A DNA stretch of 64,000 nt from Halomonas salipaludis. GTDB taxonomy: Bacteria; Pseudomonadota; Gammaproteobacteria; Pseudomonadales; Halomonadaceae. Within the stretch, counting starts at the first letter, position 1, and every line of letters starts with the position of its first letter. The position numbers and the translations under genes are program-made. The stretch is from the NCBI RefSeq assembly GCF_002286975.1, contig NZ_NSKB01000002.1, positions 186,001 through 250,000 of the forward strand, in the 5' to 3' direction. Shown one piece after another: positions 11,371 through 39,373 of this stretch. Under the pieces are notes generated by a model. That model worked only from the letters and a program-made list of their open reading frames with translations, was not told where the DNA came from and did not search any database.

Positions 11371-11393
11371 ATTCACACCACGAGTGGTCATGC

Positions 11394-13810: not shown

Positions 13811-13817
13811 GACTTGC

Positions 13818-13858: not shown

Positions 13859-13888
13859 GAGGGGGAAACATCCCTGACGGAGACAACC

Positions 13889-14329: not shown

Positions 14330-14342
14330 CCCTTGCCCCATA

Positions 14343-14369
14343 CCCGGCCGCCTATTGGCCGCGGCCGGG
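14343..14369. terminator. hairpin between convergent usp and gtsD
   Basis: A 9-bp GC-only stem (CCCGGCCGC / GCGGCCGGG) with a 9-base loop lies between the two convergent genes. There is no T run, so it may act in both directions as a weak terminator. Confidence 0.5.
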
Positions 14370-14380
14370 GCCCTGACGGG

Positions 14381-15502: not shown

Positions 15503-15540
15503 GTCGGTAACCTCTTTGTTGTTCGGTGGCTCAGAGGGTC

Positions 15541-17344: not shown

Positions 17345-17374
17345 AGCGAAATACCTCGGAGGTGAGCGACGTGC

Positions 17375-17400
17375 AACGGGCCCGCTACGTCAGGCCCGTT
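17375..17400 (-). terminator. intercistronic hairpin between gtsA and gtsB
   Basis: An 8-bp stem (AACGGGCC / GGCCCGTT) around a 10-base loop, without a T run, lies between gtsA and gtsB. Such hairpins after binding-protein genes usually protect the upstream message and partly attenuate the downstream genes. Confidence 0.6.
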
Positions 17401-17419
17401 GCCGTTCGGCAGCGACGGC

Positions 17420-18685
17420 TTACAGTGCGGCCTGGGCGGCGTTCACCATGCGCCGGGCGGCCTCCTCGGCGGCCATGTCACGCGCGTTGAAGTAGTTGGT
17501 CACCACGTCGAAGATGGCGCCCTGGACATCGGCGCGCACGGCCATGCCGTGGGCCATGCTGGGCACCAGGCCGCCCTCGTCGGCGGTGCGCTGGAAGTCG
17601 TCGAGGGACTGCTGGGCACACTGGTCGAACTCGCTCATGTCGAGGTCGGGGCGGGCGGGAATCGACCCTTTGGCCAGGTTGAAGGCCTCCTGGAAGGTCG
17701 GCTCCAGCGCCAGGCGCGCCAGGGCGTGCTGGGCATCGCGCTCCTCGCCTTCGACGCGGAACATGGCCAGGCTGTCGATATTGAAAGTGAAGGCGTCCTG
17801 GGTGCCGGGCGCGGCGGCGCACAGATAGTCCTCGCCGGCGGTCAACTCGGCGGCGGTGAACTCGCCCTTGGCCCAGTCACCCATCAGCTGCATGCCGGCA
17901 TCGCCGTTGATGACCATCGAGGTGGCGATATTCCAGTCGCGGCCGGACATGTCGTCGTCCATCAGTTCGCGCAGGCGCTTGAAGGTTTCCAGCGCCTCGA
18001 CCATCCGTTCGCTGCCCAGCGCCTCGGGGTCGAGATCGACCAGCGCCTGCTGATAGAACTCGCTGCCGCCGGTGGCCAGCAGTACGCTCTCGAAGATGGT
18101 GGCGTCCTGCCACGCCTGGCCGCCGTGGGCCAGCGGGATGAAGCCCGCCTCGCGAATCGCCTCGCCGGCACTGAACAGCTCGTCCAGGGTGGTCGGCATC
18201 TCCACGCCGGCCGCCTCGAGCACCTCGGGATTGGCCCACAGCCAGTTGACCCGGTGCACATTGACCGGCACCGCCACATAGCTGCCGTCGTGACGCATGA
18301 TCTCGGCCACCGTGGGCGGCAGCAGATCGTCCCAGCCCTCGGCCTCGGCCACCTCGTCGAGCTCGCCGAGCAGCCCAAGCTCGCCCCACTCCTGGATCTC
18401 GGGCCCCTTGATCTGAGCCGCCGACGGCGGGTTGCCGGACATGGCGCGGGACTTGAGCACGGTCATGGCGGTCTCGCCACCGCCACCGGCCACGGCAAAG
18501 TCTTCCCAGCCGTAGCCCTCGGCTTCCATCAGCTCCTTGAGCACGTTGGCCGCGCGGGCCTCGCCGCCGGAGGTCCACCAGTGCAGCACCTCCACCTCGG
18601 CGGCCTGGGCCGCGGAAAGCGTCAACGAGGCCGCCAGCGTCGTGGCCAGGGCCGTCTTGGGGAAAGAGATATTGAATGACATCAT
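17420..18685 (-). CDS. gtsA: glucose/sugar ABC transporter substrate-binding protein
   Basis: A 421-residue periplasmic binding protein of the CUT1 family, secreted by an N-terminal signal peptide (hydrophobic [17 protein letters not shown], cleavage after AQA near residue 28). The mature start [18 protein letters not shown] is the hallmark of glucose/mannose binding proteins such as GtsA. GGAG lies before the paired ATG ATG. It is the first gene of the transporter operon and is preceded by the sensor and regulator genes that should control it. Glucose is the best guess from family and context. Confidence 0.92.
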
Positions 18686-18735
18686 TGGCGTGCTCCTGCT
18701 GTTGTTATTGATCCCGGTCGTCGCCGGAGTGCCAG

Positions 18736-18811
18736 TAACGTTAGTCGAGAGCGGGCACGCGTAGGGTTACCTAGTCCTGCAAAGTATTGCGCCACCATTA
18801 CAAGCTCGTAA
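18736..18811 (-). promoter_or_regulatory. gtsA leader with three small inverted repeats
   Basis: The 112 bases between the kinase and gtsA hold TAACGTTA (18736-18743), TAGG-gtta-CCTA (18762-18773) and an imperfect palindrome reading TTAC on one side and GTAA on the other (18798-18811, overlapping the kinase stop). One or more may bind the response regulator encoded upstream. No clear -35/-10 pair was found. Confidence 0.3.
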
Positions 18812-20285
18812 TATTCTGCGGCCGCGGCAGGACGACGGCGACCTCCAGGCCCCCTGCTGGATGATTGCCGAGCGAGATATCGCCGCCCAAGGCGCGGGCG
18901 ATATGCCGGGCGATGCCCAGCCCCAGGCCGCTGCCGCCAGTATTGCGGCTGCGCGAGGGCTCGAGGCGCACGAAGGGCGCAAACACCCGCTCGCGCTGAG
19001 CCTCGGGGATGCCCGGGCCGTGGTCACGGATGACGATCGAGAGTTGCTCGGGAGAGTCAGCCAGCGTTACCTCGGCGCGCCGGCCGTAGAACACCGCATT
19101 CTCGAGCAGGTTCGCCAGACAGCGCTTGAAGGCCAGCGGCTTCACCGCTAGTGGGGCGGCGCGCCCCGTGAGGGTTACCTCACCGCCCTGCAACGCCAGC
19201 TCGGCGGCCAGCTCCTCGAGCACCGCCCGTGGCTCGACCTCCTCCACCGCCTCGTGCAGGTCGAAGCCCTTGACCGAGGCCAGGGCTCCCTTGACCAGCA
19301 GGTCGAGCTCGTCCAGCGAGGCGCAGAAGCGCTCGCGCTGCAGCGGGTCATCGAGCATCTCGGCACGCAGCCGCAGTCGGGTAATCGGCGTCTTGAGGTC
19401 GTGAGAGATCGCCGAGAACAACCGTTCGCGCTCGTCGACCTGGTCGCGGATGCGCTCCTGCATGCGGTTGAACGCCATTGCCGTGGCGGCCACCTCGCGC
19501 GGCCCGCTTTCACGCAGCGGCGGCGCGTCGAGATCGTCGCCGAGCTGGCGCGCCGCCCGCGACAGCCGTGCCAGCGGCCGAGTCACGCTGCGGATGCCGA
19601 GCAGCGCCAGGCCGATCACCGTGAGCAGCACCATCAGGCTCGCCAGCAGCCGCTCGCCGGAGAGCCAGCGGTATTCGTTGAACAGGTCGGGCACCGGCAG
19701 CAAGGTGGCGACATAGAGCCAGGTGTCGGGGCCGAGTTCCATCTGCACCACCAGGATCGGCGGCGACAGCGGCTCCATCAGCAGGCTGTGCTGGCCCCAA
19801 CGCGGCGGCAGATCGTGCAGCAGCACCTGGTTGTTGTAGACACGCAGCGTCTCGGCGCGCGAAAACTCCACCAGCACGTCGTCGATGTTCAACTCGGCGG
19901 TGAGGATCTCGCGGAAGTTGTCGACCACCAGCACCTTCTCCGGCCCCGAGCCAATATCCTCGACCGGGATGCGCCGCTCATTGACGCTGACGAAGAAGCG
20001 CGTACCGCCCATGTTGCGCAATTGGTCGAGCACGATGTGGCGGTACTCGACGGGCAGCGAGCGAAAGAAGCGCATCGACGAGGCCACGCTAAAGGCAACA
20101 TTGCGCGACAGTTCATCGAGCTGCTCGAGCTGGCTCGAGCGCACCTGGGAGGTCCACACGGCATAGCTGGCCAGCTGGGCGCTGAGCACGCCGACGAGCA
20201 TGATCAGCACGAAGCGTCCGCGTAGGGTTCGCGGCAGCCAGCGCGACAAGCGTCGGCGCCAGTGCTTCACGCGTCCAGCGTTCAC
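18798..20285 (-). CDS. sensor histidine kinase of the sugar-uptake two-component system
   Basis: A 495-residue inner-membrane kinase. Order: cytoplasmic basic N-terminus, helix 1 (about 22-44), periplasmic sensor (about 45-205), helix 2 (about 208-230), HAMP, His box FSAISHDLKTPITRLRLRAEML (about 290-310), and an ATPase domain with N box (LANLLENAVFYG), DHGPGIP and GSGLGLGIARHI. The start is GTG, overlapping the regulator's stop as GTGA. Its place next to gtsABCD matches GtrS/GltR of Pseudomonas, which senses Entner-Doudoroff intermediates and controls glucose uptake. Substrate sensing here is inferred from that context. Confidence 0.9.
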   Translation of the reverse strand: MNAGRVKHWRRRLSRWLPRTLRGRFVLIMLVGVLSAQLASYAVWTSQVRSSQLEQLDELSRNVAFSVASSMRFFRSLPVEYRHIVLDQLRNMGGTRFFVSVNERRIPVEDIGSGPEKVLVVDNFREILTAELNIDDVLVEFSRAETLRVYNNQVLLHDLPPRWGQHSLLMEPLSPPILVVQMELGPDTWLYVATLLPVPDLFNEYRWLSGERLLASLMVLLTVIGLALLGIRSVTRPLARLSRAARQLGDDLDAPPLRESGPREVAATAMAFNRMQERIRDQVDERERLFSAISHDLKTPITRLRLRAEMLDDPLQRERFCASLDELDLLVKGALASVKGFDLHEAVEEVEPRAVLEELAAELALQGGEVTLTGRAAPLAVKPLAFKRCLANLLENAVFYGRRAEVTLADSPEQLSIVIRDHGPGIPEAQRERVFAPFVRLEPSRSRNTGGSGLGLGIARHIARALGGDISLGNHPAGGLEVAVVLPRPQNITSL

Positions 20286-21004
20286 GTCAGCGCGGCGACC
20301 CGGGCGGTGAAGACGTAGCCGGCCCCGCGCACGGTGCGGATCAGTTGGGGGGAGTGGGTATCCTCATCCAGGCGTTGGCGCAGCCGGCACACGTGCACAT
20401 CCATGGAGCGATCCAGCGGCGGCGCCGGGCGGCCCCGGGTCAGCTCATACAGCGCTTCCCGCGAGAGCACCTGCTCAGGGCGTTCGAGAAACACCTGAAG
20501 CAGTTGGAAGTCGGCCCCCGATAGCGGTGTGCGGGCTTCATGCTCATCGATCAACTCACGGGTCATGCGATCCAGCCGCCAGGCGCCGAAAGCCACCATC
20601 CGGGCCTGGGCCAGGTCGGCGGGCGAACCAACCCGGGCCCGCCTCAGCACCGCCTTGATACGCGCCAGCAGTTCTCGCGGGTTGAACGGCTTGCTCAGGT
20701 AGTCGTCGGCGCCAAGTTCCAGGCCGAGGATACGGTCGGTCTCGTCGGCGCTGGCGGTGAGCATGATGATCGGCACGTCGCTGCCGCGGCGAATGTCACG
20801 GCAGATGGTGAAGCCGTCGTCGCCGGGCAGCATGATATCGACGATCAACAGGTCGGGGGTTTGGGTTGCCAGCAGGCCATGCAGCGCCTCGGCATCCTCG
20901 GCGGCCAGGGCCCGGTAGCCGTGGCGTCCCAGGTAGTCGACGAGCAGTTCGCGGATCTCAGGATCGTCGTCGACCACGATCAGGGTAGCGGGCGGTGTGG
21001 TCAT
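20282..21004 (-). CDS. OmpR-family response regulator of the sugar-uptake two-component system
   Basis: A 240-residue regulator with receiver domain (acidic DDD at 12-14, phosphoacceptor Asp56 in LIVDIMLPG, Lys in YLSKPFN) and a C-terminal winged helix (DRSMDVHVCRLRQRLDED, RTVRGAGYVF). The start at MTTPPATLIVVDDD is preferred, since the upstream extension to 21064 is unconserved in style. The gene overlaps the kinase gene (GTGA). By position it should play the GltR role and govern gtsABCD. Direct repeats 50-70 bases upstream may be its own binding site. Confidence 0.9.
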   Translation of the reverse strand: MTTPPATLIVVDDDPEIRELLVDYLGRHGYRALAAEDAEALHGLLATQTPDLLIVDIMLPGDDGFTICRDIRRGSDVPIIMLTASADETDRILGLELGADDYLSKPFNPRELLARIKAVLRRARVGSPADLAQARMVAFGAWRLDRMTRELIDEHEARTPLSGADFQLLQVFLERPEQVLSREALYELTRGRPAPPLDRSMDVHVCRLRQRLDEDTHSPQLIRTVRGAGYVFTARVAALT

Positions 21005-21052
21005 CGTCGTCCGATGGCAGGGGCGTTGCCTCGGCAGCGCCGGTGGGTCATT

Positions 21053-21071
21053 ACCAGATGACACCAGATGA
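21053..21071 (-). promoter_or_regulatory. direct repeats before the response-regulator gene
   Basis: ACCAGATGA occurs at 21053 and again at 21063. A 10-bp tandem spacing is the usual layout of OmpR-family operators, so self-regulation is possible. Confidence 0.3.
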
Positions 21072-21123
21072 TGGGCAAGCCCGGCGGGTACGACAAGGGC
21101 TCCTAGACCATGGTCGACATGCG

Positions 21124-21921
21124 CTAGAGCGCGAAGCGGTCTCGCAAGAGCCTGGCCACGGCGGTATCGGCATGGTGGCCGATCACCCTGGCAGCGTGGA
21201 CACGCCCGGCGAGTGCAGGATGGGCATTGGCCATGACGTGGGCCTCGCCGGCCACCGACAGCATTTCGGTGTCGTTGAGGTTGTCACCGAAGGCCAGGCA
21301 GGCCTCGGGGGCCACGTCCAGGCGCTCGAGCAGTGCCAGAAGCGCCTGGCCCTTGTTGACCCCGCCGGCCATCACCTCCAGGGAGTTGGCCATCGAGTAG
21401 GTGACGTGCAGCTGTTCGCCAGTTCGCGCGACGATGCCGGCCTCGAGCTCGGCCAGATGCGCTGGATCGCCGATATACAGCACCTTGCCCACCCCCTGCC
21501 CATCGAGCAGGGCCGGCTCCACCACCCGGTAGCCGAAGCCGGTATGCGCGTGCAGCGCCAGCAACTCCGGCGCCGGGGCGTCGATCAGCCACTCGTCGTC
21601 TTGATAGAGGTTGAGGCGCACCTCGGCCGGGCGCTCCAGGGCGATCAGCTCGCGGGCGTGCTCCGCCGCCAGATGTCGAGCATGCAACAGCTGATCGTCC
21701 GGGGCGTGCAGATAGGCGCCGTTGGTGCTGATCAGATGTACCGGCACCCCCAGCCGCTCGCGGAACGCCAGCATGTCGCGATAGTGGCGCCCCGAGGCGA
21801 AAGCCAGGTGGTGGCCCCGCTCGGCCAGCGCGCGCAGAGTGTCGACGGTGTCGGGGTGAAGGTCATGGTCGGCGCCCAGCAGGGTACCGTCGAGATCGGA
21901 AACGATCAGATGTGGCGGCAT
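21124..21921 (-). CDS. Cof-type HAD phosphatase
   Basis: A 265-residue cytoplasmic haloacid-dehalogenase phosphatase of the Cof/YbiV subfamily (type IIB cap). Motif I is SDLDGTLLGAD at residues 7-17, motif II is FASGRH, motif III Lys is in GGVNKGQALL, and motif IV is FGDNLNDTEML. The start at MPPHLIVSDLDG has GAGGA six bases upstream; the open frame extends 31 codons further but without a ribosome site. Such enzymes hydrolyse sugar phosphates or flavin/PLP-type phosphates with broad specificity. The nearby sugar genes fit a sugar-phosphate role, but that is inference. Confidence 0.9.
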   Translation of the reverse strand: MPPHLIVSDLDGTLLGADHDLHPDTVDTLRALAERGHHLAFASGRHYRDMLAFRERLGVPVHLISTNGAYLHAPDDQLLHARHLAAEHARELIALERPAEVRLNLYQDDEWLIDAPAPELLALHAHTGFGYRVVEPALLDGQGVGKVLYIGDPAHLAELEAGIVARTGEQLHVTYSMANSLEVMAGGVNKGQALLALLERLDVAPEACLAFGDNLNDTEMLSVAGEAHVMANAHPALAGRVHAARVIGHHADTAVARLLRDRFAL

Positions 21922-22034
21922 GCAGCGTCCTCGATGGAATCGTGTCACCCCGACTAACGTATAGCCGAACGGCCTGCGACCACAAGCGTCGAACGCGTAT
22001 GCTGGACGCATCATACCGTGTCACAGGAGACGCC

Positions 22035-22664
22035 ATGAAGACGCTCGTGATCGGTGCCAACGGCCAGATTGGCCGCCAGTACTGCGAACTCGCCAGCCGC
22101 GGCGGCATGTCGCTGCGCGCCATGATCCGTCACTCCGACCAGCAACCGTGGTTTCACGAACGCGGCATCGACACCGTGATCGGCGACCTGGAAGGCGACT
22201 TCCACCAGGCCTTCAACGGCTGCGACCAGGTCGTCTTCAGCGCCGGTTCGGGCCCGCATACCGGCCCCGACAAAACGCTGTTGATCGACCTCTACGGCGC
22301 GATTCGAGCCGTCGACCTGGCGGTCGAGCGTGGCCTGGAGCGCTTCCTCATGGTCAGCGCACTGCGCGCCAGCGACCCCATGGCCGCTCCCGCCAAGCTG
22401 CGCCCCTATATGGCGGCCAAGTTTGCCGCCGACGCCTATCTACGCAGCGCACGTATCCCCCACGTGATCCTCAAGCCCGGCAAGCTCACCGATGCCCCCG
22501 CCAGCCGACTGGTCAGTGCCACCGCCGCGCACGCCGACGGGCTCGAGGTCTCGCGCGGCAACGTCGCATACGCGTTACTGCACCTGAGCCAGGCGCGCAT
22601 GCTCAAGAACCGCGAGTTCGACCTGCTCGACGGCGACTCGAGCATTGCCATGGCCCTGCTGTAG
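22035..22664 (+). CDS. NAD(P)-binding SDR-like protein (NmrA/YwnB type)
   Basis: A 209-residue atypical short-chain dehydrogenase with the nucleotide-binding loop GANGQIGRQ at residues 7-15. A YMAAK segment resembles the YxxxK pair, and it ends ..SSIAMALL. AGGAG precedes the ATG. Proteins of this build (YwnB, BVR-B-like) bind NADPH and reduce or sense small molecules; the substrate is unknown. Its TAG stop abuts the 66-bp repeat that originally separated it from rnb, so it was the direct upstream neighbour of rnb before the nag segment arrived. Confidence 0.85.
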   Translation: MKTLVIGANGQIGRQYCELASRGGMSLRAMIRHSDQQPWFHERGIDTVIGDLEGDFHQAFNGCDQVVFSAGSGPHTGPDKTLLIDLYGAIRAVDLAVERGLERFLMVSALRASDPMAAPAKLRPYMAAKFAADAYLRSARIPHVILKPGKLTDAPASRLVSATAAHADGLEVSRGNVAYALLHLSQARMLKNREFDLLDGDSSIAMALL

Positions 22665-22729
22665 ATTGGCGGGGCCGACGGGAATCCGTATAGTGGCTGC
22701 TTACCCCCGCCAAGCTAAAGTGTCCGATG
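22664..22729. repeat. 66-bp direct repeat, left copy (rnb promoter and start codon)
   Basis: Identical over 66 bases to 30490-30555. It contains a complete promoter reading rightward (TTGGCG at 22666, 17-base spacer, TATAGT at 22689) and ends in an ATG. This copy now drives transcription into the rnb remnant and against the nagE gene. Confidence 0.95.
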
Positions 22730-22762
22730 AAGTAGGTCATCCTCGGTGATCGCGTCGCAGCC
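22727..22762 (+). pseudogene. rnb (RNase II) 5' remnant with internal deletion
   Basis: After the duplicated rnb promoter, the ATG continues into a sequence that matches rnb codons 51-62 (30703-30738) at 32 of 36 bases, not codons 2 onward. An exact 150-base (50-codon) deletion thus joined the start codon to an internal ATG. The second codon after the ATG is now TAG, so nothing useful can be made. Homology fades after 22762. Confidence 0.75.
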
Positions 22763-22843
22763 TGCTCCTCACCCTGGAAAAAGTACTGCCCTGCCCTCCT
22801 CGCCCCTCAGCGATAGCCTTAGCAGCGCTGGAGGCAAGGCGGC

Positions 22844-24547
22844 TCAGGCTTCGCCCAGCCCCCTAGCCACAGCGGTGGCCCGTTCTCCCAGCAGCACATG
22901 GATCACGCCCTGCTCCAGGCGCTGGACCGCCTGGGCGCCGAGGTCGGCCAGGGCCGCCTCATCCAGGGCCTGGGTATCGGCCAGCTCCAGGCGCAGCCGG
23001 GTGGCGGCCACCGCCGTGGCGCTGCGCAGATTGCCCTCGCCGCCCAGGGCCCGATGCCAGGCCTGACGCACCTGGGTGTCAATGGCCTGGGTCGCCTCCC
23101 CCACCTCGGGCGTCGGCGTCGGTGCGGAGGCGGCCACGGGCGCCGTGCCCTGGGCGGCCATGGCGGCGCGGATCTCGTCCGCCACCCCATCCGCGATAGG
23201 ACCGAGGATCACCTGGAGGCCGCCGCCCTGCAGGCGCAGGATGCCCCGGGAGCCCAGGGCCTTGAGGGCCGCCTCGTCAATCGCCTCGGGCTGCTCCAGT
23301 ACCAGGCGCAGCCGGGTGGTGCAGGCGCCGACGCTGGTGAGGTTGCCCGCCCCGCCCAGGGCGGCGACGAAGGCCGGGCCACGCTCGCCGCTCGCCTGGG
23401 TGGCAACGAGCGCCACGCTCTCCGGCTCGCGGCCCGGGGTGGGCAGGTCGAAGCGCACGATGGCCCAGCGGAACACCGTGTAGTAGAGGGCGAAGTAGGC
23501 CAGGCCCACCGGCAGCATCAGCCAGCCATTGGTGGAGAGACCATAGGAGAGTGCGAAGTCGAAGGCGCCGGCGGAGAAGGTGAAGCCGAGTTTGACGTCG
23601 AGCCAGTGCAGCAGCGCCATGGAGACGCCGGTGAGCACCGCATGCAGGCCGTAGAGCAGCGGCGCCAGGAACATGAAGGTGAACTCGATGGGCTCGGTGA
23701 CCCCGGTGAGGAAGGCGGTCAGCGCCAGCGACAGCAGCAGGCCACCCACCTGGGCACGCCGCCCCTTGGGCGCGGCGTGATACATGGCCAGGGCTGCCGC
23801 CGGCAGGCCGAACATCATCACCGGGAAGAAGCCCGCCATGAAACGCCCCGCGGCGGGGTCGCCGGCGAAGAAGCGGTTGAGGTCGCCGCTGGCCACCACC
23901 CCGGAGGCCGCCTCGAAGCTGCCGAAGACGAACCACACCAGGCTGTTGAGCACATGGTGCAGGCCGGTGACGATCAGCAGGCGATTGAGCATGCCGTAGA
24001 CGAACAGGCCCAGCTCGCCGGCATCGATCAGCCACTGGCCGAGGGCATCGATACCGTGCTGGATAGGCGGCCAGATCACTCCGAAGGCGACCCCCAGGGC
24101 CACCGCGGCCAGGCCGGTGGCGATGGGCACGAAGCGCCGCCCACCGAAGAAGGCCAGGTATTCCGGCAGCTGGATCGCGTGGTAGCGGTTATAGAGCAGG
24201 CCCGCCACGCTGCCGATGATGATGCCCGCCAGCACCCCCATGTCGATCTCGGGGTTGAGGGCGGTAAGCACGGCGTCCAGCACCAGGTAGCCGATCACCC
24301 CGGCCAGGCCGGCGGCGCCGTTGTTGTCATTGGCGAAGCCCACCGCCAGGCCGATGGCGAAGATCAGCGCCAGGTTGGCGAAGATCGCCTCGCCGGCACT
24401 GGCGATAAAGGCGATATCCAGCAGGTCGGGCTGGCCCAGGCGCAGCAGCAGGCCGGCGATAGGCAGCACCGCGATGGGCAGCATCAGGGAGCGGCCGAGC
24501 CGCTGTAGTCCGCCCATCAGACGGGATCCCAGGGTCATGGAAGTCAT
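22844..24547 (-). CDS. nagE: N-acetylglucosamine PTS permease EIICB with a second, degenerate IIB domain
   Basis: A 567-residue permease that imports and phosphorylates GlcNAc. The IIC domain (about residues 1-370) has ten or so helices and the GlcNAc/glucose-class signatures HHVLNSLVWF and GVTEPIEFTFMFLAPLLYG. A first IIB domain (about 385-460) has the phosphorylated Cys409 in GACTTRLRL. A second IIB-like domain (about 490-567) shows TRLRLEL but Val/Ala in place of the Cys, so it cannot carry phosphate. The ATG at 24547 is two bases after the nagF stop, so translation is coupled. It should receive phosphate from the EIIA-HPr-EI fusion encoded upstream. Its terminator is not evident. Confidence 0.93.
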   Translation of the reverse strand: MTSMTLGSRLMGGLQRLGRSLMLPIAVLPIAGLLLRLGQPDLLDIAFIASAGEAIFANLALIFAIGLAVGFANDNNGAAGLAGVIGYLVLDAVLTALNPEIDMGVLAGIIIGSVAGLLYNRYHAIQLPEYLAFFGGRRFVPIATGLAAVALGVAFGVIWPPIQHGIDALGQWLIDAGELGLFVYGMLNRLLIVTGLHHVLNSLVWFVFGSFEAASGVVASGDLNRFFAGDPAAGRFMAGFFPVMMFGLPAAALAMYHAAPKGRRAQVGGLLLSLALTAFLTGVTEPIEFTFMFLAPLLYGLHAVLTGVSMALLHWLDVKLGFTFSAGAFDFALSYGLSTNGWLMLPVGLAYFALYYTVFRWAIVRFDLPTPGREPESVALVATQASGERGPAFVAALGGAGNLTSVGACTTRLRLVLEQPEAIDEAALKALGSRGILRLQGGGLQVILGPIADGVADEIRAAMAAQGTAPVAASAPTPTPEVGEATQAIDTQVRQAWHRALGGEGNLRSATAVAATRLRLELADTQALDEAALADLGAQAVQRLEQGVIHVLLGERATAVARGLGEA

Positions 24548-24549
24548 TC

Positions 24550-27159
24550 TCAGCACCTCTCGAGGGTCGTTGTCGTTGTTGTGTCGGGGGTCGCGTCGGC
24601 CCGGGCCAGCCAGGCGGTGAGGCGCTCGCGCACCGCGGCCGCATCGTCCAGGGCCAGCAGCTCGGGCAGCTCGGCGGCCAGGGCGGCGGCATCCAGGCGC
24701 CGCAGGGCCGCCTTCACCGCCGGCACCCGGGCCGGTTCCACGGAGAGTTCGTCGACGCCCAGCGCCACCAGCAGCGGCGCGGCCAGGTCGTCGCCAGCGG
24801 CGGCGCCGCACACCCCTACCGGGCAACGCCCCTTGGCGCCCTCCACCGTGGCCTGGATCAGCCACAGCACCGCCGGGTGCAACACATCGGCCCGGGCGGT
24901 CAGCGCCGGGTCCTCGCGATCCATGGCCAGGGTGTACTGGGTCAGGTCGTTGGTGCCGATGGAGAGGAAGTCCGCCTCGGCGGCGAGGCTGGCGGCACAC
25001 AGGGCGGCGCTGGGCACCTCGATCATGGCGCCCAGCCGCGGCCGCACCTCGAGCCCCATCTCGGAGGCGATGGCCTCCAGGCGCTGGCGCACCTGGCGCA
25101 GTTCACCGGCCTCGCTGACCATCGGCAGCATGATATGCAGGGCGTCGAGTCGCGTGACGCCGAGCAGGGCCCGCAGTTGGGTCTCCAGCAGCTCGGGATG
25201 ACTGGCCCAGAGGCGAGCACCACGCACACCCAGCGCCGGGTTGGGCACCGCCGGCAGGCGCAGGTAGGGCAACTGCTTGTCGGCGCCGATATCCAGGGTG
25301 CGGATGATCACCGGCTTGCCGCCCAGGGCCGCCAGGGCAGCCTGGTATTCGCCGCGCTGGGTGGCCTCGTCGGGGGCGCTATCGCGCTCCAGGAAGAGGA
25401 ATTCGCTGCGCAACAGGCCCACGCCATCGGCGCCGGCCTCCGCGGCCAGGCGCGCCTCCTCGGCGCCGCCGATATTGGCGCACACCTCGACCTCGCGGCC
25501 GTCCCGGGTGATGGCGGGCTCGAAGGCCGCCGCCCGCGCCGCCTCGGCCTCGCGGCGGCGGGCCGCGATCCGCGCCGCCACCTCGGCGACCCGGGCCTCG
25601 CTCGGCGCCGGCACCAGGCGGCCGCGCTCGGCATCCAGGATGGCCGCCTCGCTCGGGACGTCATCGAGGGCCGCCAGCAGGGCCGGCCCCATGGCCACCA
25701 GGCAGGGAATGCCCCGGGCCCGGGCCAGGATGGCCACATGGGAGGTGGTGCCGCCGCCGGCCAGGCAGAGCCCGGCGGGACGCCGGGCGGCTACCGCCAC
25801 CAGCTCCGAGGGGGTCAGCTCCTCGGCCACCAACAGGGCGCCCTCGGGGAATTCGGGCAGCGCAGCCTCCGCCGCGTCGCTCAGCTCCGCCATCACCCGC
25901 CGCTGCAGATCGCGCAGGTCGGCGACCCGGGCGGCCAGCAGGGCGTTGCCGGTGGCCTCGAGGCGCTCGGCCTCGGCGTCCAGGGCCTCCCGCCAGGCCT
26001 GGCCGGCACCGCGCCCGGCGCGAAGGCGCTCGCCGGCCGCCGCCACCAGGTCCGGGTCCGCCAGCCAGGCGCCATGGGCGGCGAAGATCTCCGCCTCGGC
26101 GGTCTGCCCGCTGCGGGTCGCCTCGGCTTCGTCCCGGGCCAGGGCCTCGCCGACCCGGGCCAACGCCTGGGTCAGCCGCGGCGCCTCCACGACCTCGCCC
26201 TCGCCGTCATGGGACACGGTGGGCAGCGGCGGCCGATAGTGCACCAGCGGCCCCAGGGCCAGGCCGGGGCTGGCCACCAGGCCGGCCAGCTCGCCCTCCT
26301 CTAATACCTCCCCCAGTGCCTCGCCCAGCGCCTCGTTCGGTGTCGCTTGAGGCTTAGGAGCGGGATGCGGTTCGGCCTCGGGGGTGGTCAGCAGCGCCTC
26401 GGCGTCGTCCAGGGCCGCCTCGGCGTGTTCGCCCCGGGCGGTCAACCGCAGCGCCGCACCCTCGGTGAGCCCCAGGTTCATCAAGGCGCTTAGGCTATCG
26501 GCGCTGGCGCTGGCGCTGGGGCTATCGGCGCCCTCGTGATCCAGTGTCAGACTAACGCCATGCTCCCGGGCGATGGCCCGCAACCGCGCCGCGGGGCGGG
26601 CATGCAGGCCCGCCGCCAGGGCCAGGGTCAGGCGCCGCTCGGCCTCGGGTCCACCGGCCACCGTCTTATGGCATTCCGCCACCGCCGCCTCCAGCACCAG
26701 CAGCGGCTCGCCCAGGGCGACCCGGACGCCGGCCGCGAGGCTCGGCTCGCGCAGTCGCCAGCCGGCGGCCTCGGTGATCACCAAGGGGGTAATCAGGGCA
26801 CTGGCGCCCCGGGCCAGGGCGTCGGCATCGAAGCGGCACAGCGGATCGCCGGCACGTACCCGGTCGCCCACGGCCACCAGGGGTTCGATACCCTGCCCCT
26901 GCAGTTCCACGGTATCCAGGCCCAGGTGGAGCAGCAGCTCCACCCCGGCGGCGGTTTTCAGGGTCAGGGCGTGGTGGGTACGGGCGCACTGCACCACCTC
27001 GCCATCGCAGGGCGCATGCAGGCACTCGCCGAGGGGGTCGAGGGCGATGCCCTCGCCCAGGGCCTGGCCGGCGAAGACCGGGTCGGGCACCGCGCTGAGG
27101 GGCACCACCACCCCGGCCACGGGGGCCAGCAGGGTCAGGGTTTGGCTGGAATCGGACAT
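24550..27159 (-). CDS. nagF: PTS multiphosphoryl transfer protein EIIA-HPr-EI
   Basis: An 869-residue fusion that carries phosphate from PEP to NagE. EIIA(Glc-type) covers about 1-150 with active His78 (LLLHLGLDT). HPr covers about 170-260 with His186 (GLHARPAA). Enzyme I covers about 300-865 with His474 (GGTTSHVAILARARG), the PEP-binding R-S-E-F-L-F block and the Cys of PVGVCG near the C-terminus. The start MSDSSQTL has GGGAG before it; the in-frame extension to 27399 runs back into the deaminase gene. Short Ala/Glu/Pro-rich linkers join the domains. A complete dedicated relay means the cluster does not depend on host PTS proteins, which eases transfer. Confidence 0.94.
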   Translation of the reverse strand: MSDSSQTLTLLAPVAGVVVPLSAVPDPVFAGQALGEGIALDPLGECLHAPCDGEVVQCARTHHALTLKTAAGVELLLHLGLDTVELQGQGIEPLVAVGDRVRAGDPLCRFDADALARGASALITPLVITEAAGWRLREPSLAAGVRVALGEPLLVLEAAVAECHKTVAGGPEAERRLTLALAAGLHARPAARLRAIAREHGVSLTLDHEGADSPSASASADSLSALMNLGLTEGAALRLTARGEHAEAALDDAEALLTTPEAEPHPAPKPQATPNEALGEALGEVLEEGELAGLVASPGLALGPLVHYRPPLPTVSHDGEGEVVEAPRLTQALARVGEALARDEAEATRSGQTAEAEIFAAHGAWLADPDLVAAAGERLRAGRGAGQAWREALDAEAERLEATGNALLAARVADLRDLQRRVMAELSDAAEAALPEFPEGALLVAEELTPSELVAVAARRPAGLCLAGGGTTSHVAILARARGIPCLVAMGPALLAALDDVPSEAAILDAERGRLVPAPSEARVAEVAARIAARRREAEAARAAAFEPAITRDGREVEVCANIGGAEEARLAAEAGADGVGLLRSEFLFLERDSAPDEATQRGEYQAALAALGGKPVIIRTLDIGADKQLPYLRLPAVPNPALGVRGARLWASHPELLETQLRALLGVTRLDALHIMLPMVSEAGELRQVRQRLEAIASEMGLEVRPRLGAMIEVPSAALCAASLAAEADFLSIGTNDLTQYTLAMDREDPALTARADVLHPAVLWLIQATVEGAKGRCPVGVCGAAAGDDLAAPLLVALGVDELSVEPARVPAVKAALRRLDAAALAAELPELLALDDAAAVRERLTAWLARADATPDTTTTTTLERC

Positions 27160-27188
27160 GGGAAGACTCCCGATATTATTGTTAGCTG

Positions 27189-28198
27189 TTACAGGGTGCA
27201 GGTGACCTTGTTGAGATGCCGGGGGCGGTCCGGGTCGCTGCCCCGGGCCGCCGCCAGGCCGGCCACCATGACGTAGAAGCTCTGGATCACCGACAGCGGC
27301 TGCAGGGCCTCGTGGCCGGCATCCACCAAGGTCAGCTGGCGCTGGGTCACGCCCTCGTCGGCGGCCAGCAACACCCGGGCGCCGACGCCCTCGAGCCACT
27401 CGGCCAGCTCCAGCAGCCCGGCCTGCTCCGGTCCCGGCGGGGCGAACACCAGCACCGGGTAGCCGGGGCCGATCAGCGCCATGGGGCCGTGACGCACCTC
27501 GGCGCCGCTAAAGGGCTCGGCCTGGATGGCGCAGGTCTCCTTGAACTTCAGCGCCGCCTCCTGGGCCACGGCGAGGCCGGCGCCACGGCCGATCACCATC
27601 AGCTTGTCGGCACCCGTCAGGGCCTCGATGGCGGTCGACCAGTTCATCGCCAGGGCCCGGGTCAGGCGCTCGGGCAGGCCGTCCAGGGCATAGAGCAGGC
27701 CGCGATCCTCCTGCCAGTGGCCGATCAGTTGGGCCATGGCGGAGAGCGTGGCCAGGTAGCTCTTGGTGGCGGCCACGCTCTTCTCCTCCCCGGCATAGAG
27801 GGGAATCTCAGTGTCGCTGGCCGCCCCCAGGGGCGACTGGGGAGTATTGACCAGCGCCAGGGTGCGGGCGCCGGCGGCGGCCAGCGCGTGCTGGGTGGCC
27901 ACCAGGTCGGGGCTCTGGCCCGACTGGGAGACCGCCAGGGCCAGTTGGCCGGTGAGGCGCCAAGGGGCCTTGGCCAGGGTGGTCAGCGAGGGCGGCAAGG
28001 AGGCCACCGGGATGCCGCGGCGCTTCATGCACTGGTAGGCGAAGTAGCCGGCGGCGTGATCGGAACTGCCCCGGGCCACGGTGACCACGGCGGTGGGCTC
28101 GGCGAGACGCAGGCGCTCGCCCAGGTCGGCGAGCAGGGCCTGGTTGCGTTGCAGCTGGCCGCGGATGCGCTCCGGGGCGTTACGGGCTTCTTCGAGCA

Positions 28199-28208
<10 letters not shown>
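27189..28208 (-). CDS. SIS-domain glucosamine-6-phosphate deaminase (NagB-II type)
   Basis: A 339-residue protein of two SIS domains related to the isomerase half of GlmS but lacking its glutaminase domain. This form replaces the classical NagB in several Proteobacteria and turns glucosamine-6-phosphate into fructose-6-phosphate and ammonia. Visible marks: VARGSSDHAAGYF (about 43-55), SQSGQSPDLV (about 96-105), EEKSVAATKSYLATL and the closing NKVTCTL. AAGGAG precedes the ATG. It overlaps nagA by 10 bases. The annotation deaminase rather than aminotransferase rests on its place in the nag cluster. Confidence 0.9.
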
Positions 28209-29323
<1,115 letters not shown>

Positions 29324-29331
29324 GGAGCCTC

Positions 29332-30066
29332 CTAACGAGTCAGCTCGACCATAAAGTCGTAGTAGTCGGTGCGGCAGTAGGTGACGGTGAGCTCCGCCGG
29401 GGTGCCGTCGGCGAGATAACCCAGGCGCGTCACCTTGAGCAGCGCCTGGCCCTCCGGTACCTCGGCCAGGGCCGCCAGCTCGGCGTCGGCATTGATAGCG
29501 GTGACGTGCTGCAGGGCCCGGGCCACCCGCTTGCCGCTGGCCTCCAGCACCGCATAGAGGGAGGTCTCCACCGCTCGGGGATCGGGCAGCACCGCCTCGG
29601 GCAGGCAGCTCTCCTCCACCGCCATCACCACCTCGTCGGCCAGGCGCAGGCGTTTGAGGCGTGCCACCCGGGCATCGGCGCCCAGCCCCAGGCGCATGCC
29701 CTCCTCCACGCTGGGGGTGGCCAGGCCGCGCGCCAGCCAATGGGAGCTGGGGGTGAAGCCGCGCTGGGTGAGCAGCTCGGTAAAGCTGGAGAGCCGCGAC
29801 AGGGACTGATTGAGGCGCGGGGTAATAAAGGTGCCTGAACCGCGGCTGCGGCGGATCAGCCCCAGCTCGGCCAGGCGATCCAGGGCCTTGCGGGCGGTGA
29901 TCCGCGACACCTCCAGGCTCTCGGCCAGATTGCGCTCCGAGGGCAGTGCCTCGCCGGCCTGCCAGGCGCCGGTCTCGATGGCCTGCTCCAGCTGGCGGGC
30001 CAGTTGCTGGTAGAGGGGCGTCGCGCCCTGGGGGTCGAGGCGCAGCTGGGGGAAGCGTGGATCCAT
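29332..30066 (-). CDS. GntR/HutC-family regulator of the nag operon (NagQ/NagR type)
   Basis: A 244-residue repressor with an N-terminal winged helix (about 15-80: GATPLYQQLARQLEQAI, LPSERNLAESLEVSRITARKAL) and a C-terminal UTRA effector domain (about 100-240). Relatives bind GlcNAc-6-phosphate or glucosamine-6-phosphate and release DNA. The ATG at 30066 with GGGAG upstream is chosen over an in-frame ATG at 30096 that lacks a ribosome site and lies in the operator. It is the first gene of the operon, so it should regulate itself and nagA-deaminase-nagF-nagE through the paired sites at 30094-30144. Confidence 0.9.
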   Translation of the reverse strand: MDPRFPQLRLDPQGATPLYQQLARQLEQAIETGAWQAGEALPSERNLAESLEVSRITARKALDRLAELGLIRRSRGSGTFITPRLNQSLSRLSSFTELLTQRGFTPSSHWLARGLATPSVEEGMRLGLGADARVARLKRLRLADEVVMAVEESCLPEAVLPDPRAVETSLYAVLEASGKRVARALQHVTAINADAELAALAEVPEGQALLKVTRLGYLADGTPAELTVTYCRTDYYDFMVELTR

Positions 30067-30093
30067 GGATCTCTCCCTGTCTGGAGTAGTAGA

Positions 30094-30144
30094 CATACCA
30101 ATCTAATACCACTATAGCCCCATATTGATACCAGTCAAATACCA
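30094..30144 (-). promoter_or_regulatory. nag promoter with two NagQ-like operators
   Basis: On the minus strand the promoter is TTGACT (30138-30133), a 16-base spacer and TATAGT (30116-30111). Two tandem elements of the form TGGTATT-N4-TGGTAT overlap it: 30144-30127 covers the -35, and 30111-30094 starts at the -10 edge. They are 33 bp apart, on the same helix face. As I recall, NagQ boxes in Xanthomonas have this same tandem TGGTATT-N4 layout. A bound regulator would block the polymerase. Confidence 0.8.
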
Positions 30145-30209
30145 CTCCACTACAACCTTGGTGGAACAAGATTCCTTGCCGATAGAAGACCAGCGCTTTC
30201 TCTCTGGAG

Positions 30210-30398
30210 CAGGGACACTGGAGGCAGACCGGAGCGAGGCGACTTTTTCAGGGGTGAAGAGGACTCCTCAGGACGGGTTGGCCATGGATGACCTACCCCG
30301 CCCTGCAAGCGAAGTAGGATTGCGTAGCAACGCAGGAAAAAACCGAGCGCCCAGGGAGGGGGGGGGACCGCGTCTTCGCGCGGGGCCGGCCTACCGGA
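30210..30398. repeat. dispersed intergenic repeat, copy A
   Basis: Similar, with many mismatches and small gaps, to 32588-32766. Shared anchors in the same order are a GAGG-rich start, ACGGGyTGGCCATGGATG, CCTGCAAGCGrAG.AGGAT, and AGCGCCCAGGGA. It lies at the right end of the inserted segment and holds no credible gene. The rest of 30145-30489 shows nothing else I can assign. Confidence 0.6.
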
Positions 30399-30489
30399 GT
30401 ATCTGCCCCCAGGGTAACCCCGGGACTTAGCGCTGAGACGATGCAGGTTCTTGAGACACCGGGGCCAAAGCGAACTTCAGGAAGCGCGC

Positions 30490-30555
30490 GATTGGCGGGG
30501 CCGACGGGAATCCGTATAGTGGCTGCTTACCCCCGCCAAGCTAAAGTGTCCGATG
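30490..30555 (+). repeat. 66-bp direct repeat, right copy, containing the rnb promoter
   Basis: Perfect copy of 22664-22729. The promoter TTGGCG (30492) - 17 bases - TATAGT (30515) lies 33 bases before the rnb ATG, which is included in the repeat. The promoter is framed by a 9-base inverted repeat, TTGGCGGGG at 30492 and CCCCGCCAA at 30531. Confidence 0.95.
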
Positions 30556-32493
30556 CTGCAGAATAACGCCCTGCTTGCCCAGCTCAAGCAACAGATTCGC
30601 TCTACCACGCCTCGCGTAGAGGGCGTGATCAAGGCCACCGACAAGGGATTCGGCTTTCTCGAGACCGACGACGGCGAGTCCTACTTCGTGCCGCCGCCGG
30701 CCATGAAGCAGGTCATCCACGGCGATCGCGTCGCCGCCGTTGTCCACGAGGACGGCGACAAGCGCTCCGTCGAGCCGGACACCCTCATCGAGCAGGGCCT
30801 GACGCGCTTCGTCGCCCGCGTGCAGAAGCGCGAGGGACGCCTGGCCGTGGTGCCCGACCACCCGTCGGTCAAGAATGTCCTCAAGTCGCGGATCAAGAAC
30901 AGCCTCGACGAGGAGAGCATCAGCGACGGCGACTGGGTCGTGGCGCGCCTGGTACGCCATCCGCTCAAGGAGAACGACCGCGGTTTCTTCGCCCAGATCG
31001 ATGAGCTGGTGGTCAAGGCCGACGACCCGGCAGTGCCGTGGCGCGTGACCCTGGCCCGCCATGCCCTCGAGCAGGCCTCCCCCGAAGCCGGTGACGAGTG
31101 GCCGCTGCGCGACGAGGGCCTCGAGCGCGAGGACCTCACCGCCGAGCCGTTCTTCACCATCGACGGCGAGAAGACCCGCGACATGGACGATGCGCTGCGC
31201 GTCGAACCCCGCGACGGCGGCGGCTGGCGGCTCAGCGTGGCCATCGCCGACCCCACCGCCTACGTCGACGAACAGCATGCCGCCGACCTCGAGGCGCGCA
31301 CCCGGGCCTTCACCGTCTATCTGCCGGGACAGAATGTCACCATGCTGCCGGAAGTGCTGGCCGACGACCTGTGCTCGCTGTGGGAAGGCCGTGAGCGGCC
31401 GGTGCTGACCTGCACCCTGGAGATCAACGCCGACGGCAGCCTCGGCGACTACCGCTTCTTCGCCGCCACCGCCAAGTCGCATGCCAAGCTCGTCTATGAC
31501 CGGGTCTCCGACTGGCTCGAGGGCCAAGGCGAGTGGGCGCCTGACGCGGCGATCGCCCCTCAGCTCGAGGCGCTGCGCGACCTGACCGAGGCGCGCAGCG
31601 CCTGGCGCGCCGAGCATGCGCTGGTGTTCAAGGATCGTCCCGACTACGAGTTCGACCTCGACGAGGCGGGCAATGTACTCGGCATCCGCACCGAGCAGCG
31701 GCGCATCGCCAATCGCATGATCGAAGAGTCGATGATCGCCGCCAACGCCTGCTGCGCCGACCTGCTCGCCGACAAGGTCGGCCACGGCATCTTCAACGTG
31801 CACCGCGCCTTCGATCCGGACAAGGCCGAGGCCGCTCACGAGTTCCTCAGCGCCCAGCAGATCGAGGTCGAGCGCGAGGCGCTCACCGAGCTGCCGCGCT
31901 ACCGTGAGCTCAAGCGTGCCCTGGAGAGCCGCGAGGACGCCTGGCTGGATATCCGCCTGCGGCGTTTCCAGGGCTTCACCAGCATGTCGGCGCTGCCCGG
32001 GCCGCACTTCGGCTTGGGGCTTGCCGCCTACGCCACCTGGACCTCGCCGATCCGCAAGTATGGCGATATGGTCAATCACCGCCTGATCAAGCAGGTGCTC
32101 AAGGGCGAGAGCGCCTCGGCGGAGGCCAGCCAGCAGCTCACCGAGCAGCTCACCGAGCGCCGCCGCCTCAACCGCATGGCCGAGCGCGACGTCAAGGACT
32201 GGCTCTACGTGCGCTTCCTGACACCGGCCGCCAAGGCCCAGGAAACCTTCGAGGCGGAGATCATGGCCATCAACCGTGGCGGCATGCGCGTACGCCTGAC
32301 CGCCAACGGTGCCACCGCCTTCGTTCCCGCGCCGATGATGCACAGCGACCGCGACAAGGTCGTCATCGACGACAAGGAAGGCCGCATCCAGGTGGAAGGC
32401 GAAGAGCGCTACAAGCTCGGCGATGCGCTTCGCGTGGCGCTCACCGAGGCCCGGGAGGAGACTCGCTCGCTGGTGGCCCGCCCCGCCGAGTGA
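30553..32493 (+). CDS. rnb: exoribonuclease II (RNase II)
   Basis: A 646-residue 3'-to-5' processive exoribonuclease, the length of E. coli RNase II (644) and far shorter than RNase R. Order: two cold-shock domains (about 1-170, starting LLAQLKQQI and KATDKGFGFLE), the RNB catalytic domain (about 190-550, with the metal-binding D-x-D-D run in KTRDMDDALRV and SIRKYGDM-like TSPIRKYGDMVNHRL), and an S1 domain at the C-terminus (FEAEIMAINRGGMRVRL). It degrades mRNA ends in the cytoplasm. Its promoter lies in the 66-bp repeat, so the upstream insertion left it expressed. A strong hairpin follows. Confidence 0.95.
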   Translation: MLQNNALLAQLKQQIRSTTPRVEGVIKATDKGFGFLETDDGESYFVPPPAMKQVIHGDRVAAVVHEDGDKRSVEPDTLIEQGLTRFVARVQKREGRLAVVPDHPSVKNVLKSRIKNSLDEESISDGDWVVARLVRHPLKENDRGFFAQIDELVVKADDPAVPWRVTLARHALEQASPEAGDEWPLRDEGLEREDLTAEPFFTIDGEKTRDMDDALRVEPRDGGGWRLSVAIADPTAYVDEQHAADLEARTRAFTVYLPGQNVTMLPEVLADDLCSLWEGRERPVLTCTLEINADGSLGDYRFFAATAKSHAKLVYDRVSDWLEGQGEWAPDAAIAPQLEALRDLTEARSAWRAEHALVFKDRPDYEFDLDEAGNVLGIRTEQRRIANRMIEESMIAANACCADLLADKVGHGIFNVHRAFDPDKAEAAHEFLSAQQIEVEREALTELPRYRELKRALESREDAWLDIRLRRFQGFTSMSALPGPHFGLGLAAYATWTSPIRKYGDMVNHRLIKQVLKGESASAEASQQLTEQLTERRRLNRMAERDVKDWLYVRFLTPAAKAQETFEAEIMAINRGGMRVRLTANGATAFVPAPMMHSDRDKVVIDDKEGRIQVEGEERYKLGDALRVALTEAREETRSLVARPAE

Positions 32494-32511
32494 GTTCTAC
32501 CCAGCCCACGA

Positions 32512-32546
32512 CACGGCCCCGCCAGGTTCGCCCTGGCGGGGCCGTG
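32512..32546 (+). terminator. terminator hairpin of rnb
   Basis: A 15-bp stem from CACGGCCCC to GGGGCCGTG with loop TTCGC, 18 bases after the stop. No T run follows, but the stem is very stable. Confidence 0.75.
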
Positions 32547-32587
32547 CTATGTGAGCAAGGTGATCGTAGTTGCCTCTAAGCGAAGAA

Positions 32588-32766
32588 CGCCGGGGGCAGG
32601 CCGAAGAGTAGGTTTGCGCCATGGGTGAGGAGCATGCCTCCGAACGGGCTGGCCATGGATGGCCAGCACCGGTCCTGCAAGCGGAGCAGGATGCGAGAGC
32701 GCAGCAGGGCGCAAGATAGCGCCCAGGGATGGGTTTATAGCGCCTCCTCGCAGGCCTGTCGACGGA
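32588..32766. repeat. dispersed intergenic repeat, copy B
   Basis: Diverged copy of the element at 30210-30398, here between rnb and siaA. It contains CCATGGATGGCC-type small palindromes and GCAGG/CCTGC arms, as expected of a structured intergenic repeat. The short open frames across it are not convincing. The remaining stretch to 32905 is AT-richer and should carry the siaA promoter, which I could not define. Confidence 0.6.
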
Positions 32767-32905
32767 TCAGTTCCGAGCGGTACTACCTATCTGCGATAGC
32801 CCTGGCTATGTGGAGGAGTAACTCGCGTGTAAGAAAGGTTTATGCCAAGGTAACGCAAAAGGACGACAATGGTGGGTGAGTTGATCCATCAAGGAAGCTG
32901 ACGCG

Positions 32906-34951: not shown

Positions 34952-34975
34952 ATCATTGCCAGCCAAGGAATTGCC

Positions 34976-35509: not shown

Positions 35510-35516
35510 GCTGACC

Positions 35517-36694: not shown

Positions 36695-36697
36695 GCA

Positions 36698-37570: not shown

Positions 37571-37596
37571 GCGTTTTCTCCAGATCGGGTATATGG

Positions 37597-39344: not shown

Positions 39345-39373
39345 GACGTCTTACGACTGAAACGGTCGGCGAC

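What the first reader, a model, noticed from the sequence alone, without database searches (positions are those of the whole stretch)
22664..30489. 7.8 kb GlcNAc cluster inserted at the rnb leader, bounded by a perfect 66-bp direct repeat
The segment 22664-22729 equals 30490-30555 base for base. Removing 7826 bases would restore a simple SDR-gene / 64-base leader / rnb arrangement. The cargo is a self-sufficient GlcNAc pathway with its own EI-HPr-EIIA relay, regulator and operators. No recombinase gene or terminal inverted repeat is present. The structure fits integration of a circle or donor fragment by homology with the rnb leader, a way of gaining a sugar pathway while leaving the essential-type gene rnb its promoter.
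Basis: partly seen in the sequence, partly recalled or inferred. Interest (0 to 1): 0.72.

Follow-up and report, generated by a model that had tools for sequence, protein, structure and literature searches.

The report
Regained sugar cluster beside rnb promoter
A salt-loving bacterium whose closest relatives seem to lack the pathway for the sugar GlcNAc appears to have picked it back up from another genus at nearly its ancestral chromosomal position, leaving a duplicated copy of a neighbouring gene's promoter as a scar; a clear but mechanistically ordinary case of gene transfer.

Summary
The 66-bp direct repeat is exact and the nag cluster is a real insertion. The 4 other genomes held of this genus (Franzmannia group) have HAD-SDR-rnb with one leader and no nagA or nagE match. 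The cluster is Bisbaumannia-like: four-fold-site identity is 85-91% for nag genes against 67-69% for rnb and HAD; nag and rnb/HAD trees conflict. Three points were missed. (1) Relatives carry nag in the same interval (HAD-nag-rnb or nag-SDR-rnb), so this is probably loss and regain; here nag lies right of SDR, an order in 0 of 80 named rnb loci. (2) The repeat is the rnb core promoter plus 5' UTR (exact pattern upstream of rnb in 77 of 80 loci). (3) The left copy carries a 33-nt shred of rnb (codons 52-62) of Franzmannia, not Bisbaumannia, type. Best reading: a crossover in the rnb -35 box on the right, and a non-homologous join inside rnb on the left, duplicating about 249 bp of recipient DNA, later trimmed. 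No recombinase needed. A plain circle carrying the donor's own rnb does not fit without later conversion.

The parts
21124..21921 (-). HAD-family hydrolase gene, left neighbour of the slot
   Evidence: Pfam Hydrolase_3 2.4e-55; left neighbour of nag, SDR or rnb in many relatives
22035..22664 (+). SDR/NAD(P)-binding gene, native Franzmannia type
   Evidence: Pfam NAD_binding_10; next to rnb in 4 of 4 congeners
22664..22729 (+). Left (orphan) copy of the rnb core promoter plus 5' UTR, up to and including ATG; points toward the 3' end of nagE
   Evidence: 66/66 identical to the right copy; TTGGCG-17-TATAGT at 22666-22694
22730..22762 (+). Scar: rnb codons 52-62 following the leader ATG, 150 bp of rnb missing between; codon 53 CAG is TAG here
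   Evidence: With the ATG 32/36 to own rnb 30703-30738; 34, 32, 32 and 31 of 36 to G002, G001, G004 and G003; 24 and 25 of 36 to G008 and G007, 24-28 of 36 to G039, G078, G053; 29/33 against a maximum of 21 in 300 shuffles
22763..22787 (.). Left junction zone, origin unassigned
   Evidence: G007 match begins at 22788
22844..24547 (-). nagE, PTS EIICB
   Evidence: Pfam PTS_EIIC 8.4e-70, PTS_EIIB; coordinates
24550..27159 (-). nagF, EIIA-HPr-EI fusion
   Evidence: Pfam PTS_EIIA_1, PTS-HPr, PEP-utilizers; coordinates
27189..28208 (-). SIS-domain sugar-phosphate deaminase (nagB-type, name by context)
   Evidence: Pfam SIS 5.7e-25
28199..29323 (-). nagA, GlcNAc-6-P deacetylase (amidohydrolase)
   Evidence: Pfam Amidohydro_1 6.3e-20
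29332..30096 (-). GntR/UTRA (HutC-type) regulator, NagQ-like; 30096 is the mechanical ORF start, an inner ATG at 30066 with a purine-rich stretch before it is the likelier start (inference)
   Evidence: Pfam GntR, UTRA; ORF; alignment
30095..30144 (-). nag promoter with two direct-repeat operator pairs (TGGTAT-N5-TGGTAT)
   Evidence: (TTGACT-16-TATAGT); tandem NagQ motif TGGTATT reported in PMC4494728 (passages)
30211..30423 (.). Dispersed intergenic repeat; among the 13 genomes searched its long form is best matched in the two Bisbaumannia-group genomes; not at this position in G007, G008, G039 or G078
30443..30489 (+). Donor-type stretch upstream of the rnb leader
   Evidence: 43/47 to G008; extended to 30497: 51/55 to G008, 50/55 to G007, 28/55 to G002 and to G003
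30490..30555 (+). Right copy of rnb promoter and 5' UTR; donor-to-recipient switch inside its first 8 bases (GATTGGCG, holding the -35 box)
30553..32493 (+). rnb (RNB-domain ribonuclease), native Franzmannia type
   Evidence: rnb tree groups it with the 4 congeners, 100*

Best explanation
The ancestor of this Franzmannia-group genome had HAD-SDR-leader-rnb and no GlcNAc pathway. A chromosomal fragment from a Bisbaumannia-like relative, in which nag lies directly upstream of the rnb leader, entered. Its right side crossed over into the recipient's rnb promoter at the shared GATTGGCG (-35) block. Its left end was joined non-homologously to recipient rnb at codon 62, on a sister copy or through a recircularised intermediate. 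This duplicated about 249 bp of recipient DNA (leader plus 62 rnb codons). The left duplicate then lost 150 bp between two ATGs and drifted, leaving promoter plus a 33-nt scar. Shown: repeat, scar, empty sites, tree conflict, donor-type and recipient-type boundaries. Inferred: order of events, non-homologous joining, the 150-bp deletion as a separate step, function of the promoters. The result is a regained NagQ-type GlcNAc PTS pathway, an intact rnb promoter on the right, and an orphan promoter facing the nagE 3' end.
For: Empty site in 4 of 4 congeners and no nagA or nagE match in those 4 at E 0.001. nag 85-91% at four-fold sites to G008/G007 against 67-69% for rnb and HAD, 64-65% for the response regulator and 54-57% for the histidine kinase and the gene after rnb. 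nag tree: own plus G007 and G008, 100*; rnb and HAD trees: own with the 4 congeners, 100* (quick trees); AU test rejects own+G007+G008 for rnb (p 2.7e-52) and HAD (p 2.7e-8). The Bisbaumannia-type block 30443-30489 ends at the promoter, and the spacer repeat is best matched in Bisbaumannia among the genomes searched. Both leader copies have T at 22701/30527 where 4 of 4 congeners have C, as expected from a duplication inside this lineage. Scar 31-34 of 36 to the four congeners against 24-25 of 36 to Bisbaumannia. Of 275 family genomes only the own one matched 22690-22860 over more than 45 bases (at most 3 candidates scored per genome). One-ended-homology integration giving 109-950-bp duplications is documented in E. 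coli (PMC3240628, passages).
Against: The scar differs from own rnb at 4 of 33 sites while the 66-bp leader pair differs at 0 (Fisher p 0.011), and two of the four are G002 alleles. A single simple duplication predicts even divergence unless conversion or later recombination occurred. Non-homologous joining at the left is inferred from absence of visible homology, with 25 nt unassigned and no exact donor in hand. Only 5 genomes of the genus are held. The window stretch 30214-30442 is not at this position in the donors fetched.
Confidence: 0.66

Rival explanations
1. A recircularised or naturally circular donor molecule (nag plus leader plus the first 62 or so rnb codons) integrated by one crossover; either gene conversion made both leader copies recipient type, or the molecule came from an unsampled Franzmannia strain that had already taken nag by ordinary homologous replacement.
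For: Gives the same geometry directly: leader plus rnb piece, nag, leader plus full rnb. The two G002-like alleles in the scar would be donor alleles. In E. coli 56 of 60 Lac-minus integrants gave the PCR product of a duplication, and 14 sequenced ones were explained this way (PMC3240628, passages).
Against: With a Bisbaumannia rnb piece the scar should be Bisbaumannia type; it is not (24-25 of 36 against 34 of 36 to G002). No nag-bearing Franzmannia other than the window was found among 5 genomes.
Confidence: 0.22
2. Reverse direction: this lineage always had HAD-nag-rnb, and an SDR-leader-rnb piece from a congener was inserted to its left.
For: The left copy (SDR end, leader, scar) is G002-like; explains why nag lies right of SDR.
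Against: Vertical nag should be as far from Bisbaumannia as rnb and HAD are; it is much closer. SDR is next to rnb in 4 of 4 congeners including the more distant ones. Both leaders share a base absent from those 4.
Confidence: 0.07
3. Mobile-element or site-specific integration (att-like 66-bp repeat).
For: Perfect direct repeat at both ends.
Against: The five cluster genes are metabolic or regulatory and the spacers are short; the repeat is the rnb promoter; no plasmid or phage record found covers more than 10% of the cluster; the four donor-type loci aligned hold the cluster beside rnb without a second leader on its far side.
Confidence: 0.02
4. Assembly artefact.
For: The genome is a 33-contig draft.
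Against: The repeat is 66 bp inside a 782,779-bp contig; completeness 100, contamination 0.05; both repeat copies carry a base not seen in the congeners, and the left one has a decayed scar.
Confidence: 0.03

Closest known systems
Homology-facilitated illegitimate recombination / one-ended-homology integration with duplication (E. coli, PMC3240628, passages read; Acinetobacter, Streptococcus and Pseudomonas work seen only as references in PMC5361080)
   Same: One junction in shared sequence, the other without visible homology; a short duplication of the recipient segment (here about 249 bp; 109-950 bp in 14 sequenced E. coli clones)
   Different: A natural event seen after the fact; both duplicates are recipient type; left copy later reduced
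Insertion of T6SS effector-immunity modules in Vibrio cholerae (PMC5361080, passages)
   Same: Cargo added beside a conserved anchor by a join proposed to be akin to homology-facilitated illegitimate recombination, leaving remnants beside it
   Different: Here a sugar pathway, the anchor is a promoter, and the cargo returns to its probable ancestral neighbourhood
NagQ-type GlcNAc PTS locus (Pseudomonas and Xanthomonas kind; gene order recalled, from no call; NagQ tandem TGGTATT motif in PMC4494728, passages)
   Same: GntR regulator, deacetylase, SIS deaminase, EIIA-HPr-EI and EIICB in one cluster; tandem TGGTAT operators
   Different: No difference in content noticed; placement only

Membership tests
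NagQ-type GlcNAc PTS catabolic cluster | EIICB, EIIA-HPr-EI, deacetylase, SIS deaminase, GntR/UTRA regulator together | tested here: met
   Pfam domains of all five genes
NagQ-type GlcNAc PTS catabolic cluster | Tandem TGGTATT operator at the promoter | tested here: met
   two TGGTAT-N5-TGGTAT pairs, the only ones with that spacing in the window; motif from PMC4494728 (passages)
NagQ-type GlcNAc PTS catabolic cluster | Growth on GlcNAc | not testable with these tools
   needs culture
Homology-facilitated illegitimate recombination product | Foreign DNA confirmed by empty site and tree conflict | tested here: met
Homology-facilitated illegitimate recombination product | One junction at shared sequence | tested here: met
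   GATTGGCG common to donor and recipient, donor type before it and recipient type after
Homology-facilitated illegitimate recombination product | Other junction without homology or with microhomology only | tested here: inconclusive
   25 nt at 22763-22787 unassigned; true donor not in hand
Single-crossover (circle) insertion with donor rnb | Hybrid repeats: donor type after the crossover in the left copy | tested here: not met
   left leader past GATTGGCG 57/58 to G002 (49-55/58 to the other three congeners; 32-35/58 ungapped to four donor-type genomes) and scar 34/36 to G002 against 24-25/36 to Bisbaumannia; met only if the donor was Franzmannia-like
Integrative element with att sites | Integrase or transposase gene | tested here: not met
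   none among the five cluster genes; spacers not searched separately

The most novel reading that the evidence does not exclude
The HAD-rnb interval is a recombinase-free exchange socket of the family: the almost invariant rnb promoter is a crossover anchor through which nag modules leave and re-enter genomes. In this strain the duplicated, still-identical promoter keeps the 7.8-kb module precisely excisable back to the empty allele, while the orphan copy is retained as an antisense promoter against nagE.
Probability: 0.15. Interest if true: 0.55.

Novelty: new member of a known kind. Interest (0 to 1): 0.36.

Why it matters
It is a readable natural record of how a whole catabolic pathway can be regained across genera without any visible mobile element: donor type, empty site, both junctions and a decaying scar can all be seen. 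It also suggests that nag in this family tends to sit in one chromosomal slot next to rnb, and that a conserved promoter can be both the anchor of the exchange and the thing preserved by it.

Tried and rejected
Integrase/att-site reading: no recombinase among the five cluster genes and the repeat is the rnb promoter. Plasmid or phage carrier: 18 plasmid and 2 phage records match only 1-10% of the cluster at 72-87% identity (near mode). Dispersed repeat at 30211-30423 as the recombination site: it lies inside the spacer, not at either junction, and related copies are scattered in Franzmannia, Bisbaumannia and other genomes searched. Simple Campbell circle with donor rnb: rejected in its plain form by the type of the scar. 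Vertical retention of nag: disfavoured by four-fold-site identity. A terminator between the orphan promoter and nagE: none found in 22550-22950; G008 has one downstream of nagE, G007 none by the same scan. Paper searches for a nag gain/loss account in Halomonas, for loss and regain at one locus and for gain by recombination of flanking core genes gave listings with no title on this case; I opened none of those papers. Papers of which I saw passages: PMC5361080, PMC3240628, PMC4494728, PMC5343134, PMC10690426.

Limits: one search left 52 of 275 genomes unscored; one search scored at most 3 candidates per genome; the match lists were cut; at most 40 candidates per genome were scored, so repeat counts are floors. 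The 20 nag regions were picked by me from the best matches, not strictly the top 20. In one search the nagF query was out of frame, so its nagF identities are not used; searches use the corrected frame. In the 80 named loci only up to 10 kb upstream of rnb were seen, less in several cut by contig ends. Trees are quick ones (SH-aLRT only; composition and long-branch warnings shown). Stretches L155-L160 were fetched and not analysed.
Full report
OBSERVATION. The repeat is exact: 22664-22729 and 30490-30555 agree at 66 of 66 bases, 7826 apart, and a search of the own genome gave only these two full copies plus one partial hit. So the left copy is leader + ATG + rnb codons 52-62, with the 150 bp between rnb's start ATG and Met51 missing, and codon 53 reading TAG instead of CAG. 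The match after the ATG (29 of 33) exceeds the best of 300 shuffles (21).

WHAT THE REPEAT IS. It contains TTGGCG-17-TATAGT. The exact pattern occurs within 120 nt upstream of rnb in 77 of 80 named relatives and a relaxed form in 80 of 80. I read the repeat as the rnb core promoter plus 5' UTR to the ATG; promoter activity itself is inferred.

THE CARGO. nagE, nagF (EIIA-HPr-EI), SIS deaminase, nagA and a GntR/UTRA regulator (gene names by domain and context). The promoter region has two tandem TGGTAT pairs, the form reported for NagQ (PMC4494728, passages; PMC5343134, passages, calls the NagQ motif a tandem repeat). GC is 71.4% in 22763-30489, 68.1% on the left flank (10000-22663) and 64.1% on the right (30556-45000).

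EMPTY SITE. Five genomes of the genus are held, own included. The 4 others have SDR-leader-rnb contiguous and none has a nagA or nagE match at E 0.001. One has a contig of the same length as that of Franzmannia pantelleriensis AAP and another as that of Halomonas sp. ML-15, so I call the genus the Franzmannia group (genus described in PMC10690426, passages). Joining the window's flanks at the repeat gives an allele that aligns with G002 with one difference in the 100 bases that span the joint.

WHERE NAG LIES ELSEWHERE. The 20 regions that I picked from the best DNA matches outside the genus all hold nag next to rnb with none of the marker genes between. In 80 named rnb loci the upstream order is HAD-rnb 45, rnb with none of the marker genes within reach 16, HAD-nag-rnb 9, nag-rnb with HAD not seen 5, HAD-SDR-rnb 4, HAD-nag-SDR-rnb 1, SDR-nag-rnb (the window's order) 0. 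Two of the 80 are congeners. In the more distant genera the nag tree partly follows the rnb tree, but a g14 nag row falls with g5, and the long branches carry warnings. I infer that nag-SDR-rnb is old, that Franzmannia lost nag, and that this genome regained it on the other side of SDR. The inference of an old state is by distribution only; the trees are unrooted.

SOURCE. Four-fold-site identity to G008/G007: nagE 88/87, nagF 89/88, nagB 90/89, nagA 89/85, nagQ 91/87, against rnb 67/68, HAD 69/69, response regulator 65/64, histidine kinase 54/56, gene after rnb 55/57. G007 has a contig of the same length as that of Bisbaumannia pacifica NBRC 102220, G008 is of the same genus code, and G039 matches Billgrantia campisalis A4 in the same way. 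nag tree: own with G007 and G008, 100*; rnb and HAD trees: own with the 4 congeners, 100*. AU tests reject own+G007+G008 on rnb (p 2.7e-52) and HAD (p 2.7e-8). Two non-coding marks agree: 30443-30497 is 51/55 to G008 and 28/55 to G002, and the spacer repeat has its best matches in G008 and G007 (82% over query 42-254), whereas congener copies mostly end near query position 192; 13 genomes were searched for it in all. G007 and G039 share nag plus rnb at 89% against 72-77% in the neighbouring pieces, which suggests another exchange at this slot; G008 and G039, however, align as one piece of 85% over 15.4 kb, so that contrast is less sharp.

JUNCTIONS. Right: Bisbaumannia-type to 30489, shared GATTGGCG, then Franzmannia-type leader and rnb. 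Left: Franzmannia-type SDR, leader and rnb scar to 22762; the G007 match starts at 22788. Scar counts: 34, 32, 32, 31 of 36 to G002, G001, G004, G003; 24, 25, 26, 24, 28 of 36 to G008, G007, G039, G078, G053. Both leader copies carry T at 22701/30527 where the 4 congeners have C. Thus a recipient segment of at least 249 bp (30490-30738) appears to have been duplicated around the insert. In 275 family genomes only the own one matched 22690-22860 over more than 45 bases (at most 3 candidates scored per genome). The E. coli work on one-ended homology found a duplication product in 56 of 60 atypical integrants, 14 sequenced ones of 109-950 bp, explained by shortened, recircularised molecules and a single crossover; the other 4 looked like homology-facilitated illegitimate events (PMC3240628, passages). 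A linear homology-facilitated join could give the same structure here. I cannot separate these.

UNEVEN DECAY. The leader pair differs at 0 of 66 sites, the scar and own rnb at 4 of 33 (Fisher p 0.011). Two of the four are alleles of G002 and two are seen in none of the 4 congeners. Own rnb is identical to G002 from 30556 to 30722 and then nearer to G003 over much of its length. Conversion between the leaders, later recombination in rnb, or a second Franzmannia source could each explain this.

CONSEQUENCES. The right promoter copy should serve rnb. The left copy points at the 3' end of nagE and no terminator-like site was found in 22550-22950, while G008 has one downstream of nagE; G007 has none by the same scan. 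Antisense transcription and precise excision by recombination between the repeats are predictions, not results.

VERDICT. Observation confirmed, interpretation right in outline, refined in slot history, donor, scar and mechanism. A new example of a known kind of event, unusually legible.

Noticed in passing
window 30211-30423: Dispersed intergenic repeat: 32 matches in own genome (itself included), 15-26 in each of 4 congeners, 26 and 33 in two Bisbaumannia-group genomes, all floors; a related copy lies downstream of rnb at about 32620.
   Followed up: partly
window 22664-22762: Orphan rnb promoter is unchanged while the attached rnb shred has decayed; conversion or selection possible.
   Followed up: partly
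L056 and L057 (G007, G039): nag plus rnb about 89% identical between two genera while neighbouring pieces are 72-77%: possibly a second cross-genus exchange at the same slot, this time including rnb.
   Followed up: no
L108/L192 (Litchfieldella qijiaojingensis): HAD-nag-SDR-rnb while two other Litchfieldella loci have HAD-SDR-rnb: another gain or loss at the slot.
   Followed up: partly
L193 (g14) against L191/L201 (g5): nag of one g14 genome groups with g5, unlike its rnb: possible further transfer.
   Followed up: no
window 22887-23004 and 23202-23319: 118-nt direct repeat at 70% within nagE, in line with the two EIIB stretches that Pfam counts.
   Followed up: no
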